Below, in pieces: positions 25,105-31,574 of a stretch of DNA of 33,771 nt. The notes under the pieces are model-generated. The model was not told the origin of the DNA and did not search any database. It saw only the letters and a program-made list of their open reading frames with translations. Where the stretch lies: NCBI GenBank assembly GCA_902779395.1, contig CACZBK010000030.1, positions 1-33,771 of the forward strand, read 5' to 3'. A program made the position numbers and the translations under genes. The DNA is from an uncultured Lachnospiraceae bacterium (GTDB taxonomy: Bacteria > Bacillota > Clostridia > Lachnospirales > Lachnospiraceae). Each line of letters opens with the position of its first letter. Position 1 is the first letter of the stretch.

Positions 25105-26073
25105 TCAAACATCCACCGCCAGCAATTCTTTCTCCACGGCAGCAAATACTTTATCAGTATCGTATTCCGGTGCAAAGCGCTCTGCTATATTGCAGATCAT
25201 CTCTACACGTGTGATATCTTCCTCCACCTCATCTGCTATCTGCTCAACATCTTTGCCCCGGTGAAGCTTTTTGCAGATCTGTTCTATCAAGTGACGATCT
25301 TCTCCGCGAGTTTCTCCACGTTTCTCATATACATCAAAAATATCAATCATAGTTACCTTTCCTCCCTTCTCTTCGATAAATGATTTATCTTCCATAATCT
25401 CTGTAAACTTATTATTCCCCAAGAGTGTAGCCATCAGCTGCAGGACCTCACGCACATGCTTCATTTCCTCTTTTGAACCGACGTAAGTTCCGGTACGCTG
25501 CATCTGAACAAAATAATCAGCAACAAATCTGAAATCACTTTTAAAACCCGCCAGCTGCTCATCAGTCAGATACGCTATCTCATATATGTTTATCGGATAC
25601 TCCGGTACAAAAGCTTTAAGCTCATCACTAAGCGCATCTCCCAGGGCTTCATGCAGTGTCCGAGCTTTATCCCAGCGATGCTCATATCCGAAATACAGCA
25701 CAAGCGTTATAACCGGATACCGCTTTCGGGACTTTTTTCTCTTTCCTTTTTCATCCGTCTCATAACATATCTGATCCCGGTATGAAGCCCCATCATAACC
25801 TATCACACGGATGGGCATATCATCTTCTGCCACAGTCTGGTTTTCGAGGCCAAGCAAGGCTACACTTATAGTATTCTCCTGCCAGTATTTAGTTACATCC
25901 CGTTCCAGCTCACGAAATGCTTTTTCTCCCTGATATACCTGCCTTTCCGCCGCCGGTTTAAGATCCTCCTCCTTAATACGCTGCCTGCCGCCAAATACAA
26001 GATTATTTACTATATCAGCAAAGACATCATTATATCTGCATAAGGAATTTTCCAGTATGTCTTTTTCCGCCAT
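25105..26073 (-). CDS. Rpn-family recombination-promoting nuclease/putative transposase
   Basis: The 322-residue protein fits the Rpn (PD-(D/E)XK) family. It has the N-terminal YNDVFADIVNNLVF, the core ISVALLGLENQT followed by MPIRVIGYDGASYRDQ, and YPVITLVLYFGYEHRWDKARTLHEAL. The C-terminal part contains MIDIFDVYEKRGETRGED, also usual for these proteins. E. coli relatives cleave DNA and raise RecA-independent recombination. The active-site lysine position appears as glutamine in LENQ, as in several clostridial members. GGAGG lies 8 bases before the ATG. It has its own promoter with a LexA-type box, pointing to induction by DNA damage. It is separated from the downstream SNF2 pair by about 100 bases. 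Confidence 0.88.
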   Translation of the reverse strand: MAEKDILENSLCRYNDVFADIVNNLVFGGRQRIKEEDLKPAAERQVYQGEKAFRELERDVTKYWQENTISVALLGLENQTVAEDDMPIRVIGYDGASYRDQICYETDEKGKRKKSRKRYPVITLVLYFGYEHRWDKARTLHEALGDALSDELKAFVPEYPINIYEIAYLTDEQLAGFKSDFRFVADYFVQMQRTGTYVGSKEEMKHVREVLQLMATLLGNNKFTEIMEDKSFIEEKGGKVTMIDIFDVYEKRGETRGEDRHLIEQICKKLHRGKDVEQIADEVEEDITRVEMICNIAERFAPEYDTDKVFAAVEKELLAVDV

Positions 26074-26117
26074 GTTCTATACCTCCATATAAATGAACTA
26101 CAACGTTGTGTAGGATC

Positions 26118-26146
26118 AGCATAGAACGTATGTTCGTATGTGTCAA
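26118..26146 (-). promoter_or_regulatory. SigA promoter of the Rpn gene with embedded LexA (SOS) box
   Basis: On the minus strand TTGACA (26141-26146) and TATGCT (26118-26123) are 17 bases apart. The spacer holds CGAACATACGTTC (26124-26136), matching the Gram-positive LexA/DinR consensus CGAACRNRYGTTYC at all but its last base. A bound repressor would block the promoter completely. ACAACGTTGT, a second small palindrome, lies downstream at 26100-26109. Confidence 0.82.
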
Positions 26147-26153
26147 TATGGTT

Positions 26154-26178
26154 TATGACCAAGATTTCGACAACTTTA
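26154..26178. repeat. 25-bp direct repeat, left copy
   Basis: TATGACCAAGATTT, two variable bases, then ACAACTTTA. The same 25 bases with 2 differences occur in the same orientation at 27536-27560. The copies bracket the XRE/ImmA/149-residue cassette and each also lies just upstream of a minus-strand promoter. Confidence 0.8.
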
Positions 26179-26199: not shown

Positions 26200-26241
26200 A
26201 AACCCTGCGGCTGTACAAGACGCAGGGTTGTTTGCTGTTTT
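26200..26241 (-). terminator. Intrinsic terminator after the 149-residue gene, copy 2 of a duplicated element
   Basis: It has the same 42 bases as 19936-19977. On the minus strand AACCCTGCG/CGCAGGGTT is followed by TATGTTATTTTATG. It lies 20 bases after the stop codon and should end the XRE/ImmA cassette transcript. Confidence 0.85.
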
Positions 26242-26260: not shown

Positions 26261-26710
26261 TTAAAGCCCGTACCCCCTCTTAAGCTCCTCGATCTGTTCA
26301 AAAGGAAAGCACTCCGCGCAGCCATCCGGTATCTGCTCCAATTTGGATATAAACTCTTTTACCAGCTCTATTCCTTCAACGCTGTGATCACCGTTCTCCG
26401 GCATATGACGTATGTACCACACCCGGTCATATATCTCGATCTGTGAAATGATCTGCCTGACATCCAGACTGAATTCAGATTCGTTACTCTCATTGGCCTC
26501 ACCATAATGATAGATCACCCGATCCAATCTACGCATAATAGCCTTACGATTCAGATCCAGCGGAAGATATACACGTATGTTGTCTTCCTCATCTTCCGGC
26601 TCTTTGCGAATAACCATTTCGGAAAGAGATTTATCGATCAGGTACGGCTCGTTTATATAGAGCGGTGTCTGATCTTTGGGAATAGGGTATGGGTCAAGTC
26701 GATGATTCAT
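26261..26710 (-). CDS. Hypothetical 149-residue protein of the XRE/ImmA cassette
   Basis: The protein is acidic and has no motif I recognise. It starts MNHRLDPYPIPKDQTPLYI, carries an acidic stretch EPEDEEDNIRVYLPLD, and ends CAECFPFEQIEELKR with two cysteines. No signal peptide or membrane segment is present. AAGGAG lies 6 bases before the ATG. The start overlaps the end of the ImmA-like gene by 17 bases in another frame, so the two are translationally coupled. A partner or substrate role next to the protease-like gene is inference. The duplicated terminator follows it. Confidence 0.7.
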   Translation of the reverse strand: MNHRLDPYPIPKDQTPLYINEPYLIDKSLSEMVIRKEPEDEEDNIRVYLPLDLNRKAIMRRLDRVIYHYGEANESNESEFSLDVRQIISQIEIYDRVWYIRHMPENGDHSVEGIELVKEFISKLEQIPDGCAECFPFEQIEELKRGYGL

Positions 26711-27056
26711 AAAATGCTCCTTTATCTGTCAATTCCTTATCGGTACCAAGTTTCTCCCAGACCTTACAGGCTACATCCCATACATGACCAAGTTCATGAG
26801 CTGCAGCAAAAACCTGTTCTGCAGTTGTCTTAGCGGTATTAATATATACAAAATCAGTAAGCTTTCCCTCTAGAAATCTTTTGATATGAAAGCCTCTGTT
26901 CTTTGTCTCGTCAGCGATAGGGTAGTATACTACGATACAGTGTTTTTCCAATATTTTGAAAATATCATCTTTAATAATTGCGTTGTTAACAATATATTCT
27001 TTCCTAACGCTTTTAACTACTTCTGGTATTAAGCTATTAATCTTATTCCAATCCAT
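26694..27056 (-). CDS. Short ImmA/IrrE-like metallopeptidase
   Basis: The 120-residue protein carries AAHELGHVWDV near 85-95, the HExxH zinc site of ImmA/IrrE proteases that cut XRE-type repressors. The upstream strand IVVYYPIADETKNRGFHIKRF and FVYINTAKTTAEQVFAAAHE fit the family. After HELGH only about 30 residues follow, and the usual downstream Glu in an E..AN.FA segment is missing, so a third metal ligand is not visible. The protein may be truncated, inactive, or completed by a partner. AGGAG stands 9 bases before the ATG. A terminator hairpin separates it from the upstream XRE gene. It overlaps the 149-residue gene by 17 bases. Confidence 0.78.
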   Translation of the reverse strand: MDWNKINSLIPEVVKSVRKEYIVNNAIIKDDIFKILEKHCIVVYYPIADETKNRGFHIKRFLEGKLTDFVYINTAKTTAEQVFAAAHELGHVWDVACKVWEKLGTDKELTDKGAFYESST

Positions 27057-27070
27057 ATTACCTATCTCCT

Positions 27071-27104
27071 AAAAAGGGCTGTACAACTACTATGTACAGC
27101 CCTT
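27071..27104 (-). terminator. Terminator between the XRE and ImmA genes
   Basis: On the minus strand AAGGGCTGTACA pairs perfectly with TGTACAGCCCTT over 12 bp around a 7-base loop, followed by TTTTT. It lies right before the ribosome binding site of the ImmA-like gene, so it acts as an attenuator unless another promoter exists. Confidence 0.88.
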
Positions 27105-27110
27105 ACTAAC

Positions 27111-27434
27111 TCATATTGCCTCTCTTATTTCTACGTACTCATCCATCAAGTCGAGTACTTTATAAAGACTCTCCGGATTACTAAATTCTTTCATAAATTC
27201 AAGATTAGGGGCAAGTCTTTCCGGTTCTTTATTAATCAGATCATCTCCAGATACACCTAACGTAGACGCCAACTTTTTGATTTCTACAGGAGGTATCATC
27301 ACTTTGCCCTCTATCACATTCCAAACATCCTTCATAGAATATGACATCTGCTCAGCTAAATCTTCGGGAGTGAGGTCTGCCTTCTGCATAAAAGTATAGA
27401 CGTTAACGCCAATTTTCCTATACAAATTAGCCAT
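27111..27434 (-). CDS. XRE-family helix-turn-helix regulator
   Basis: The 107-residue protein has an XRE/Cro-type domain at about 10-70: VNVYTFMQKADLTPEDLAEQMSYSMKDVWNVIEGK, then PVEIKKLASTLGVSGDDLI. A short helical tail follows (NPESLYKVLDLMDEYVEIRE). Such proteins usually repress their own promoter and are targets of ImmA-type proteases, which fits the next gene. AAGGAGG precedes the ATG by 6 bases. Repeated GTTT(G)ACAAATT elements lie over the start of its transcript and are candidate operators. Confidence 0.85.
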   Translation of the reverse strand: MANLYRKIGVNVYTFMQKADLTPEDLAEQMSYSMKDVWNVIEGKVMIPPVEIKKLASTLGVSGDDLINKEPERLAPNLEFMKEFSNPESLYKVLDLMDEYVEIREAI

Positions 27435-27535: not shown

Positions 27536-27560
27536 TATGACCAAGATTTAAACAACTTTA
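27536..27560. repeat. 25-bp direct repeat, right copy
   Basis: This is the partner of 26154-26178 with 23 of 25 bases identical. It lies upstream of the XRE promoter. Together the copies frame about 1.38 kb. Confidence 0.8.
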
Positions 27561-27691: not shown

Positions 27692-28372
27692 TTACCCCTT
27701 CATAACCCTCTCCACCCATTCATTAAAGTGTGGGCACTTTTCTCTCATTTTATCAATACCGATCCTTTGCAGCGGAAATACCACCATTCCACCTTTCCGA
27801 TAATTCAGATATCTTAACAATCTTTTAGAAGGTGCTGTTTCCGATCCCTGATCAATTTCTTCAGGTTCTATACCTTCCACCTCATTTATCAGATTATCTA
27901 TCCCTTCTGATTTGTCCGGATAAAAATCTTTTAAAGCATTAAGTTCACAGTAAAACAATGCTTCAAATTCATGTAACTGAATATAAGGTATGAACAGATC
28001 CTCACTTACACCAATCCTGCTTATGATATCTTCTTTCAAGCTCTCTTCCAGTCTGCATACTTTATCCAGTGCATTTCCCGCTCCCATTGCAGCATCATAA
28101 CCGGGAAAATCTACCGGAATGGCATAAAAGTCAAACATAGTAGTAACTACATCGCCATAAGCCAGGCTTTTTCTAATATCATTTATGGCTTTTTCATACC
28201 GTACCAAACCGCCCTTATATACTTTCCCAGCTTTCCTGTCTACGGAAGTAGTCAGCGTTATTGGCACAAGCTGCACCGAATAAGCCGTCCTTTCCGATAT
28301 ATACGGGGCCAGCACTTCTTTAACAAACCGATTTTCCGATTGTCCTTCGCATATAACCCTTATTATCTTCAT
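27692..28372 (-). CDS. DUF4276 family protein, TOPRIM-like
   Basis: The 226-residue protein has IRVICEGQSENRFV at 4-17, the start of a TOPRIM-like fold with acidic E9 and E13. It also has TTMFDFYAIP with D81, and YIQLHEFEALFY near 130-141, typical of DUF4276. These acidic positions could bind a metal for nuclease activity. The ATG overlaps the stop of the AAA ATPase gene (ATGA), so the two are made together. ATPase plus TOPRIM-like pairs occur in phage-defence systems such as PARIS and the Rlo genes, so defence is a reasonable inference. The exact active residues are a by-eye assignment. Confidence 0.85.
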   Translation of the reverse strand: MKIIRVICEGQSENRFVKEVLAPYISERTAYSVQLVPITLTTSVDRKAGKVYKGGLVRYEKAINDIRKSLAYGDVVTTMFDFYAIPVDFPGYDAAMGAGNALDKVCRLEESLKEDIISRIGVSEDLFIPYIQLHEFEALFYCELNALKDFYPDKSEGIDNLINEVEGIEPEEIDQGSETAPSKRLLRYLNYRKGGMVVFPLQRIGIDKMREKCPHFNEWVERVMKG

Positions 28373-29493
28373 GGCATAGCCCCCAATACATTCTTAAGCC
28401 ACAGATCTCCCAGGGTATAGTCTTCCAGCCATGCTTCCAGTTCTGTATTCCGCATCCTTTTTAATATACTTGTTCTCTTTTTCTCATCATAATCCGCAAC
28501 GATAATGTCTTCCGGCTCAAATTCATTCAGCAATTCTACAGATTGTGTCGCTATAATGATCTGGGCATTTTCCGAAGCCATGCGGATCATTGTTGCCAGT
28601 ATGCTTACCGCATTGGGATGCAAACCTATCTCAGGCTCATCCAATACAATCACTTCAGGCAGATATTCAGCCGGCTGTAAAAGAAGAGTGGTAAGAGCAA
28701 TAAAACGAAGAGTTCCGTCCGAAAAAGCGCTTGGTCCAAACACTTCATCGCTGTCCTTTTCATACCATGTAAGGCTCAGCCTGACATCGGTCCCTTCATA
28801 TGGCAATTCCAATTCAAAATCATGAAACCTGGGAAATACTTCTCTTATAAAACCTACTATTCTTGTATAATAAGGTTTAAGGTTTTCTTCCTGTTTCATA
28901 TGATACAGATATGCTGCAAGATTACCTGCATCGTTGCGCAGGTACTTATAATCCCAAACAGAACCGGGCTGACGGATCTTAGATGTGATGGAAGTATCAT
29001 TGAAATGGTATACCCTGACCCCCGCTAAAAAATCAGCTATCCTTTTTCTTATCGCTGCACTTTCTTCATCAGCATAACTAATCAGAGCGCTGGTTTTTCC
29101 GGGTATAGGATATACCCACTTCTGTTCTTTTTGAGCCTCGTCTCCTGTTATGCTAACCGATTCCTGTGACAGGAATAATTCACCATTTATGCCATGTGCA
29201 AGTGCGAGATCATATACCAACTCTTCGTTCTCATCCGCTAATGTCACCTGTGCATTAATGTTCTCTGTATTCTTTACTCCAAAATGCATAAGCGCATCCG
29301 CATAGCCATTCTCCGCAACATACTTCCCCAGCTTATCCGTAACTATAGCAGAAAGCAGCTCCATAAAGGAGATATAATTACTCTTCCCTACGCCGTTTGC
29401 ACCTATCAGCGTGTTAACGCAGTCCAGTGCCAGGCTTTCCATCCCTGTCCCGTATGATTTAAATCCTTCTATCTTAATTTCTTTTATTCTCAT
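28369..29493 (-). CDS. AAA ATPase of the ABC/RecF-like type
   Basis: The 374-residue protein opens with IKEIKIEGFKSYG and a Walker A GANGVGKS at 31-38. It has an ABC-type signature region FSDGTLRFIALTTLLLQP at about 255-272 and a Walker B VIVLDEPEIGLHP near 287, followed by the switch IIIATQSVELLNEF. This is the AAA_21/RecF-like layout found in ATPases paired with effector nucleases. AGAGG precedes the ATG by 5 bases. It overlaps the DUF4276 gene by 4 bases. About 95 bases separate it from the upstream membrane-anchored hypothetical gene, which may belong to the same unit. It most likely acts as the sensor and energy module of the pair. Confidence 0.9.
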   Translation of the reverse strand: MRIKEIKIEGFKSYGTGMESLALDCVNTLIGANGVGKSNYISFMELLSAIVTDKLGKYVAENGYADALMHFGVKNTENINAQVTLADENEELVYDLALAHGINGELFLSQESVSITGDEAQKEQKWVYPIPGKTSALISYADEESAAIRKRIADFLAGVRVYHFNDTSITSKIRQPGSVWDYKYLRNDAGNLAAYLYHMKQEENLKPYYTRIVGFIREVFPRFHDFELELPYEGTDVRLSLTWYEKDSDEVFGPSAFSDGTLRFIALTTLLLQPAEYLPEVIVLDEPEIGLHPNAVSILATMIRMASENAQIIIATQSVELLNEFEPEDIIVADYDEKKRTSILKRMRNTELEAWLEDYTLGDLWLKNVLGAMP

Positions 29494-30780: not shown

Positions 30781-31020
30781 TTAAACATCGAGTAATCTGT
30801 ATGGATTTCCGGCCAGTTCCTCCTTTAATATATCCAATACGGCTTCTCGTGATTCCAGATAAAGATCCGTATCCTCATCCATCAAAGCCGCATATACTGT
30901 TGTCTTGATCAAAAACTCGACAGCTTCATCCCTGGAACACCCTTTATCGTTCATAATGTATTCAACAAGAAATGCCGCTATATTTCGCATAGCCTTTTTC
31001 TGATCAGCACCTGTAATCAT
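30781..31020 (-). CDS. Small helical protein of the DUF3990 cassette
   Basis: This 79-residue helical protein contains the segments AFLVEYIMNDKGCSRDEAVEFL and LYLESREAVLDILKEEL. I cannot name a family with certainty; similar small proteins accompany DUF3990/DUF3791 genes in clostridia. Its ATG overlaps the DUF3990 stop by one base (TAATG), so it is co-translated. A role as antitoxin or regulator of the ART-like protein is inference. Confidence 0.72.
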   Translation of the reverse strand: MITGADQKKAMRNIAAFLVEYIMNDKGCSRDEAVEFLIKTTVYAALMDEDTDLYLESREAVLDILKEELAGNPYRLLDV

Positions 31021-31574
31021 TATCCAATCACCTGCCTTTTCACTTTGTCAAAGCTCAAGGTATTCACTGCCTCCTGGGTTCTGAAAAAGTACTGTTTAGG
31101 TAAATTCTCCGGCTTTAACTCCGCAATTACCTTATCGCATACTTCATCGGAATATCCTGATTCCTCCAGTTCATCATAGTATTCATTGATAATAGTAGTT
31201 GTTTCAGCATCCGCTGTAGGGCCTATCACGATATCATAATCATGCGTACAACCATTACATTTACGGTTTTGAAGGATAAATCGCAGCCACTCCTTATCGG
31301 CTTTTTCAAATACCTTAACCTTTAGTCCAGCCGTTTCTTCACTGAACAGAAGATTATATCTGTAGGCTACAATCGGCTGTATCTTTATTCCCTTTTTGTT
31401 TTTGAGAAAGCTTTGGCGTTTCTCTGCAATGCTCTTGTTTCTGATTGCAAGCCTCTCCGCATGTGAAGGAACTGCGGTGGCATAGAATCCTTTGCCAAAA
31501 TCCTTATAACCTTTTCCGGCTGATACATCTATCTCCTCAAAATCATATATCGTTCCATGATACAAAGGCTTCAA
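31020..31574 (-). CDS. DUF3990 protein, possible ADP-ribosyltransferase-fold toxin
   Basis: The 184-residue protein begins MKPLYHGTIYDFEEIDV and continues with AGKGYKDFGKGFYATAVPSHAERLA. This H-Y-type start and the following block are the hallmark of DUF3990 and recall the NAD-binding part of ADP-ribosyltransferases. A further block DYDIVIGPTADAETTTIINEY lies near 112-132, and LPKQYFFRTQEAVNTLSF near the end also fits the family. Translation starts at TTG 31574, supported by GGGAGG 9 bases upstream; the site overlaps the DUF3791 stop codon. Enzymatic activity is not proven by the sequence. The cassette order suggests a toxin-antitoxin-like unit. Confidence 0.84.
   Translation of the reverse strand: MKPLYHGTIYDFEEIDVSAGKGYKDFGKGFYATAVPSHAERLAIRNKSIAEKRQSFLKNKKGIKIQPIVAYRYNLLFSEETAGLKVKVFEKADKEWLRFILQNRKCNGCTHDYDIVIGPTADAETTTIINEYYDELEESGYSDEVCDKVIAELKPENLPKQYFFRTQEAVNTLSFDKVKRQVIG

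What the first reader, a model, noticed from the sequence alone, without database searches (positions are those of the whole stretch)
26118..26146. SOS-controlled Rpn nuclease: LexA box inside the promoter
CGAACATACGTTC, 12-13 of 14 positions of the Gram-positive LexA/DinR consensus, lies between TTGACA and TATGCT of the Rpn gene. Rpn proteins cleave DNA and promote recombination, so a repressor lifted by DNA damage would make this nuclease part of the SOS response. I do not recall that link as established for clostridial Rpn genes.
Basis: partly seen in the sequence, partly recalled or inferred. Interest (0 to 1): 0.72.

Follow-up and report, generated by a model that had tools for sequence, protein, structure and literature searches.

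The report
LexA-controlled Rpn nuclease toxin–antitoxin gene
A gene for a probable DNA-cutting toxin with a built-in antitoxin carries, inside its promoter, the docking site of the bacterial DNA-damage repressor, so DNA damage probably switches it on; this wiring is seen in a few related gut bacteria and not in most relatives of the gene.

Summary
On the minus strand, TTGACA–17 nt–TATGCT precedes the rpn gene, and the spacer holds CGAACATACGTTC (13 of 14 to the Firmicute LexA consensus). The genome encodes LexA and RecA, and recA has the box at the same place between -35 and -10. A weight matrix from 42 non-rpn SOS-type sites of the genus finds only this site in the window. Three other species keep the box before their rpn orthologue (61–64% protein identity). 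Nine of 13 close homologues lack it, as do nearly all more distant Rpn genes scanned: the link is clade-specific, not a general clostridial trait. A second gene of this genome, a PD-(D/E)XK-like putative nuclease, has a near-identical SOS promoter. The window gene belongs to the Rpn family by homology and has a conserved internal start for an 81-aa RpnS-type antitoxin. Best reading: LexA represses full-length Rpn and damage releases it. Binding, induction and cleavage are untested. My searches listed no report of LexA control of an rpn gene.

The parts
25105..26073 (-). rpn gene, 322 aa, Rpn/YhgA-like PD-(D/E)XK protein (RpnL)
   Evidence: ORF; no Pfam/NCBIfam hit of its own at the thresholds used, but of 100 aligned members (itself included) 71 match PF04754 Transposase_31 and 20 match TIGR01784 Rpn; N23 and D59 invariant, E77, R89, Y93, D94 at least 90% in 100 sequences; AF2 pLDDT 92
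25105..25350 (-). internal RpnS-type ORF, 81 aa, starting at codon 242
   Evidence: GGGAGG (25366-25361) ahead of ATG 25350; internal ATG behind a GGAG/GGAGG run in 6 of 6 close homologues; M242 at least 90% conserved in 100 sequences; role from PMC10327210
26123..26136 (-). LexA box CGAACATACGTTCT
   Evidence: kept in three other species
26141..26146 (-). -35 hexamer TTGACA
26118..26123 (-). -10 hexamer TATGCT (17-nt spacer)
26082..26086 (-). Shine-Dalgarno GGAGG of rpn
   Evidence: sequence
26154..26176 (-). upstream element AAGTTGTCGAAATCTTGGTCATA just before the -35; possible site of a second regulator
   Evidence: second copy at 27536-27558, same at 21 of 23 positions; none in 100 shuffles of the window. 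Diverged copies in the rpn promoters of G073 and G090 rest on position only: with 3 mismatches allowed the genus has about as many control as real matches
26200..26229 (.). palindrome AAACCCTGCG...CGCAGGGTT between the upstream operon and rpn, terminator-like by inspection
   Evidence: sequence; not listed by the terminator scan
27536..27558 (-). second copy of the upstream element, ahead of the HTH/M78 operon

Best explanation
The rpn gene is a clade-specific member of the SOS regulon. A LexA dimer sits on the box in the promoter spacer and keeps RNA polymerase off. DNA damage (RecA filaments, LexA self-cleavage) lifts repression and full-length RpnL, a PD-(D/E)XK DNA nuclease, is made. The same message carries an internal start for an 81-aa RpnS-type antitoxin, which would restrain RpnL. 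Since Rpn overexpression itself triggers SOS in E. coli, the circuit would be a brake-guarded positive feedback, probably serving anti-phage defence or arrest of damaged cells. Shown here: operator, promoter, lexA and recA presence, conservation in four species, family membership by homology, conserved internal start. Inferred: LexA binding, induction, cleavage, inhibition by RpnS, purpose.
For: Operator and promoter; shuffles 1/1000; only matrix hit in the window. LexA (TIGR00498, 5.8e-69), RecA (TIGR02012) and a YneA-like protein (54 bits, cut-off 60) in the same genome, with boxes; recA has TTGACA-N4-box-TAT. Orthologues at 61-64% identity in G073, G078 and G090 keep TTGAC-N5-(C/A)GAACNNNNGTTCTAT while the N4 before the box differs in each. 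Promoter pattern TTGACN5CGAACN4GTTCTAT: 16 sites in 397 family genomes, reversed control 0. Rpn membership. Internal start in 6 of 6; C-terminal length varies by multiples of four residues, as described for RpnS (PMC10327210).
Against: No binding or expression data. 9 of 13 close homologues lack the box and the tree needs two changes (gain plus loss, or two gains). G090's 12/14 site alone is reached by 58 of 1000 shuffles. Raw box counts and promoter-like counts are not above control. The window protein itself matches no Pfam or NCBIfam family and Foldseek gives nothing at E<=0.001. The 10 relatives of the second gene that were scanned have no box above 11/14.
Confidence: 0.85

Rival explanations
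1. The palindrome is a site of another repressor (for example an ImmR/CapH-type regulator such as the HTH at 27111-27434, or a phage-type repressor), not LexA.
For: An HTH + M78 peptidase pair resembling CapH/CapP (PADLOC PDC-M69A 7e-14, capH 6e-5; PDC-M69B 3e-20, capP 0.003) lies directly upstream, and a shared element (21 of 23 positions) stands before both rpn and that operon.
Against: The box has the form of the boxes at recA, lexA and polymerase genes of the genus. G073 and G090, which keep the box at rpn, have no relative of the HTH protein at E<=0.001. The shared element is a different sequence from the box.
Confidence: 0.08
2. Chance: a promoter that happens to hold a LexA-like palindrome and is not regulated.
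For: Loose box scanning is at background; most Rpn promoters scanned lack it.
Against: Shuffles 1/1000, 0/1000, 1/1000 for three species, same position in four, only matrix hit in the window.
Confidence: 0.04
3. LexA does bind, but the main physiological product under SOS is the RpnS antitoxin, so the circuit protects from Rpn-type nucleases rather than releasing one. (This is a variant within LexA control, so its odds overlap with the best explanation.)
For: The RpnS start is conserved; in E. coli RpnS levels and the short internal transcript are higher than the full-length ones (PMC10327210, parts 1-2 of 4 read); a separate RpnS-like 77-aa ORF, 69% identical, exists elsewhere in the genome.
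Against: The box lies at the 5' promoter, ahead of the RpnL start; E. coli rpn genes have internal transcription starts for RpnS (PMC10327210). An internal promoter candidate here (25407-25380, 9 of 12) is no better than chance.
Confidence: 0.2

Closest known systems
E. coli Rpn (YhgA-like, PF04754/COG5464) RpnL/RpnS genes-within-genes toxin-antitoxin (PMC5350276, PMC10327210)
   Same: PD-(D/E)XK core residues at nearly the same spacing, internal RpnS start, C-terminal part varying by 4-aa units, placement beside defence genes
   Different: The word LexA occurs in neither main text; there Rpn induces SOS, here SOS probably induces Rpn. The window protein is divergent and below Pfam thresholds.
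SymE/SymR of E. coli: LexA-repressed toxin (PMC1891008, listing and start of abstract seen)
   Same: Toxin gene under LexA repression with extra layers of restraint
   Different: Product homologous to the antitoxin MazE; restrained by antisense RNA and Lon instead of an intragenic protein antitoxin
DNase colicins (recalled, no call)
   Same: LexA-repressed DNA nuclease with a neutralising protein
   Different: Secreted, plasmid-borne, other fold, separate immunity gene
LexA regulon of Clostridioides difficile (PMC4234289, passages seen)
   Same: GAAC-N4-GTTC-type boxes at recA, lexA, uvr and accessory genes
   Different: 'Rpn' does not occur in that text; one 'Transposase' target (GAAC....GTTT at -217) was not identified by me as Rpn or otherwise

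Membership tests
Rpn / YhgA-like nuclease family (PF04754, TIGR01784) | Sequence match to the family model | tested here: inconclusive
   Window protein: no hit. Of 100 aligned members including it, 71 match PF04754 and 20 match TIGR01784.
Rpn / YhgA-like nuclease family (PF04754, TIGR01784) | PD-(D/E)XK residues corresponding to RpnA D63, E82, Q84, R94 (PMC5350276, passages) | tested here: met
   D59 invariant, E77 and R89 at least 90% in 100 sequences; Q79 present in the window protein but E in some boxed orthologues. D-to-E spacing 18 against 19 in RpnA, E-Q and E-R spacing equal; correspondence by spacing, not by alignment to RpnA.
Rpn / YhgA-like nuclease family (PF04754, TIGR01784) | PD-(D/E)XK fold | tested here: inconclusive
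   AF2 model pLDDT 92; Foldseek best hit NucC at E 0.03, further down Card1, Can2 and restriction enzymes mixed with unrelated folds; nothing at E<=0.001
RpnL/RpnS genes-within-genes | Internal ribosome site and start for the C-terminal domain | tested here: met
   6 of 6 close homologues, M242 at least 90%
RpnL/RpnS genes-within-genes | 4-aa repeats near the start of the C-terminal domain, varying in number | tested here: met
   Against the window protein, five homologues differ there by -4, 0, 0, +8 and +16 residues; the extra residues are IEQG/IEKG-like units
RpnL/RpnS genes-within-genes | RpnL toxic and DNA-cleaving, RpnS inhibitory | not testable with these tools
   needs expression
LexA (SOS) regulon, Firmicute type | CGAAC-N4-GTTC operator overlapping the promoter | tested here: met
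LexA (SOS) regulon, Firmicute type | LexA and RecA in the genome | tested here: met
LexA (SOS) regulon, Firmicute type | Operator conserved at orthologues | tested here: inconclusive
   4 of 13 close homologues, all four in one genus
LexA (SOS) regulon, Firmicute type | LexA binding and damage induction | not testable with these tools
   needs wet work

The most novel reading that the evidence does not exclude
A lineage of Lachnospiraceae has wired DNA-cutting toxin genes (Rpn with intragenic antitoxin, and a second PD-(D/E)XK-like protein) to the SOS repressor through a shared promoter cassette, giving a self-amplifying damage switch: damage makes nuclease, nuclease makes damage, and the antitoxin sets the threshold. 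This would be an SOS-gated suicide or anti-phage module.
Probability: 0.35. Interest if true: 0.75.

Novelty: new variant of a known kind. Interest (0 to 1): 0.57.

Why it matters
Rpn proteins are widespread toxin–antitoxin nucleases with anti-phage activity whose native regulation is hardly known; the E. coli work links them to SOS only as inducers of damage. A LexA operator in the rpn promoter would close the loop and gives a direct test of when such a nuclease is released. It also suggests that SOS regulons recruit defence-type nucleases within single genera.

Tried and rejected
General rule 'clostridial Rpn genes are SOS-controlled': rejected. Upstream scans of 26 non-own loci from the family search gave at most 11/14 (28 were given, L014 too short, L035 unusable; L022, L030 and L032 matched only the C-terminal part, so their scanned stretch is not a true promoter). 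Of 80 GTDB loci 79 were scanned (L290 too short): 7 reached 12/14. L222, L223 (identical copies), L225 and L227 are the boxed genus genes; L230 (same genus) and L236 lie at -215 without promoter context; L289 (Butyrivibrio) is a lone 13/14 site at -82. The in-gene control gave 2 of 79 at 12 and none at 13.

HTH/M78 pair as the owner of the box or of the TTGGTCATA element: not supported, as relatives at E<=0.001 are absent from G073 and G090. The element itself is secure only as a pair within the window: in 35 genus genomes with 3 mismatches allowed the listed matches (30) are no more than the control matches (31 by my sum of the table).

Second gene (L001/L120/L150) as an Rpn homologue: not shown. 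Profile comparison gave probability 66% with an unconvincing alignment, no Pfam hit; only the invariant D44 and E71-x-K73 pattern in 8 of 8 relatives suggests a PD-(D/E)XK nuclease. Ten other loci scanned have no box above 11/14.

AAA-ATPase/PDDEXK_9 genes: 4 of 27 upstream stretches scanned reach 12/14 (one more too short); three are G078 genes, two of them with the box in the promoter spacer. Suggestive only. The first structure job with six sequences gave pLDDT 45; the 100-sequence alignment gave 92. The first upstream scan was on wrongly oriented loci and is superseded.

Full report
WHAT IS THERE. The finding lies in the promoter of a minus-strand gene at 25105–26073 (322 aa). Read on that strand: TTGACA (26146–26141), 17 nt, TATGCT (26123–26118), and the spacer is CATACGAACATACGTTC. 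CGAACATACGTTCT differs from CGAACRNRYGTTYC at one position. The start codon follows at 26073 behind GGAGG. A palindrome at 26200–26229, terminator-like by inspection only (the scan does not list it), lies between the gene and the upstream HTH/M78 operon.

IS IT MORE THAN CHANCE. Counting alone does not decide: 7 window matches at up to 2 mismatches against 5.0 expected, 8 genome sites for CGAACRNRYGTTY against 6 for the reversed pattern, 3 promoter-like pairs against 2.8. The identity of the 8 sites speaks for function: two at recA, one between lexA and a yneA-like gene, one at a Y-family polymerase gene, one here, one before a second putative nuclease, one overlapping a parS-like palindrome near a relaxase-like ORF, one in a stretch without a clear promoter (families of lexA, recA, yneA-like and polymerase). 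recA shows TTGACA-AAAT-CGAACAAACGTTT-TATATT, the same geometry. A matrix trained on 42 sites of the genus before recA, gyrB-like, polymerase and other genes (labels partly by eye; rpn excluded; all chosen by the promoter pattern, so the geometry is built in) gives 18.7 bits to this site, and no other window position reaches 8.5. Of 1000 dinucleotide shuffles of the upstream 200 nt, 1 reaches the score.

CONSERVATION. In 35 genomes of the genus, the rpn orthologues of G073, G078 (two identical copies) and G090 keep the box in the spacer: TTGACT-TGAG-CGAACATATGTTCTAT, TTGACA-ACAG-CGAACGTATGTTCTAT, TTGACG-AAAC-AGAACATACGTTCTAT. Protein identity to the window gene is 61–64% and the N4 before the box differs in each. 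Shuffles reaching their scores: 1, 0 and 58 of 1000. Other close homologues have no promoter box: five genes of G064, G060 (and its frame-broken copy), G088 and G089 (one of them, L161, has a 12/14 site at -215). On a tree of 29 N-terminal domains the four boxed rows lie in one 13-row clade (SH-aLRT 97) and the box needs two changes; 2 of 500 shuffles are as clustered. In 79 GTDB loci scanned, nothing outside the genus has a convincing promoter box; a lone 13/14 Butyrivibrio site lies at -82. In 397 family genomes the strict promoter pattern TTGACN5CGAACN4GTTCTAT has 16 sites, control 0. Two are in this genome; of the 14 others none shows an rpn-like ORF by eye, though three gave no informative ORF. 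There a sigma-like protein appears three times, a ~97–116-aa protein three times and a ruvA-like gene once (labels by eye).

A SHARED PROMOTER CASSETTE. The second own-genome site with the identical 13-mer (C1:274831) sits in AACCATATTGACATACCCGAACATACGTTCTATAATG before a 285-aa protein. Compared with the rpn promoter AACCATATTGACACATACGAACATACGTTCTATG, all but the N4 is the same over 33 nt. The downstream proteins are not shown to be homologous (inconclusive); the second has an invariant D44 and E71-x-K73 in 8 of 8 relatives and, in some relatives, GEAR-like repeats in the C-terminal part, so a PD-(D/E)XK nuclease is likely but not shown. In G090 (L114) and G070 (L079) a similar cassette stands before only a 4-codon ORF; in L114 a longer ORF begins about 420 nt further on. 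An upstream element AAGTTGTNNAAATCTTGGTCATA precedes rpn and, at 27536–27558, the HTH/M78 operon. Look-alikes precede the SOS promoters of G073 and G090, but with 3 mismatches allowed matches are at control level in the genus, so only their position speaks for them. Its owner is unknown.

WHAT THE GENE IS. The protein itself has no Pfam or NCBIfam hit, but of 100 aligned members (itself included) 71 match Transposase_31/YhgA-like and 20 match the NCBI Rpn model. D59, E77, Q79 and R89 stand at nearly the spacing of RpnA D63, E82, Q84, R94, whose mutation abolishes or weakens activity (PMC5350276, passages read). AlphaFold2 with 100 sequences gives pLDDT 92; Foldseek's best solved match is the PD-(D/E)XK nuclease NucC, only at E 0.03. 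Codon 242 is an internal ATG behind GGGAGGAAAGGTAACT; an internal ATG with a Shine–Dalgarno-like run is present in 6 of 6 close homologues, and just behind it the homologues differ by multiples of four residues. Both are hallmarks of RpnS, the intragenic antitoxin (PMC10327210; passages and parts 1–2 of 4 read). A free 77-aa RpnS-like ORF, 69% identical, lies elsewhere in the genome.

MECHANISM. LexA on the spacer would block the promoter that gives full-length RpnL. Damage clears LexA, RpnL and RpnS are made from one message, and the outcome depends on their ratio. In E. coli, Rpn overexpression induces SOS and RpnS reduces this (PMC5350276, PMC10327210). Joined with the operator found here, this makes a positive feedback with a protein brake. 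Steps shown: sequence, conservation, family. Steps inferred: binding, induction, cleavage, inhibition, benefit. The neighbourhood (HEC-01A/B pair, CapH/CapP-like pair) fits a defence island.

NOVELTY. Searches for Rpn with LexA/SOS or damage terms listed no paper that reports LexA control of an rpn gene; the held library is open-access only, and most listings were cut to the best rows. 'LexA' occurs in neither of the two Rpn papers' main texts. One parallel: rpn-like pseudogenes and a similar gene in the pneumococcal ComX regulon, in a species without a LexA-mediated SOS response (PMC6560143, passages). I rate it a new variant of a known kind: known nuclease TA family, known repressor, new and clade-limited wiring.

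Noticed in passing
window 26261-27434: Three-gene minus-strand group: HTH (CapH-like), M78 peptidase (CapP-like) and an unknown 149-aa protein; PADLOC PDC-M69A/B.
   Followed up: partly
window 27692-29493: AAA ATPase plus DUF4276 pair matching PADLOC HEC-01A (1.7e-121) and HEC-01B (1.5e-62), near rpn.
   Followed up: no
window 31020-31574: 184-aa protein matching PADLOC candidate PDC-M13B (4e-32).
   Followed up: no
L059, L060, L072, L076, L084, L099, L107 (genus) and L336, L337, L343 (other genera): An uncharacterised ~97-aa protein (VDVICQH..DG..P.RIR..DEDG) repeatedly sits directly behind a LexA-box promoter; the one member tested (L060) has no Pfam hit.
   Followed up: partly
L103, L115, L335, L342, L345: A sigma-factor-like protein of about 186 aa (labelled by eye) behind SOS-type promoters in several genera.
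   Followed up: no
L043, L054, L057, L069, L071, L082, L088, L097, L106: gyrB-like genes (by eye) behind SOS-type promoters in the genus.
   Followed up: no
L114 and L079: SOS promoter cassette with the upstream element but only a 4-codon ORF directly behind it, similar in two genomes: gene remnant or non-coding RNA.
   Followed up: partly
L116, L117, L321 (G078): AAA-ATPase/PDDEXK_9-type genes with LexA-like boxes (12, 12 and 13 of 14) upstream, two in the promoter spacer.
   Followed up: partly
L007 1501-1522: LexA-like match overlapping a parS-like palindrome TGTTCCACGTGAAACA near a relaxase-like ORF (parS motif and relaxase label recalled).
   Followed up: no
L121/L146 (G078): Two contigs carry identical boxed rpn genes, each directly behind an AAA-ATPase/PDDEXK-type gene: duplication or assembly redundancy.
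   Followed up: no
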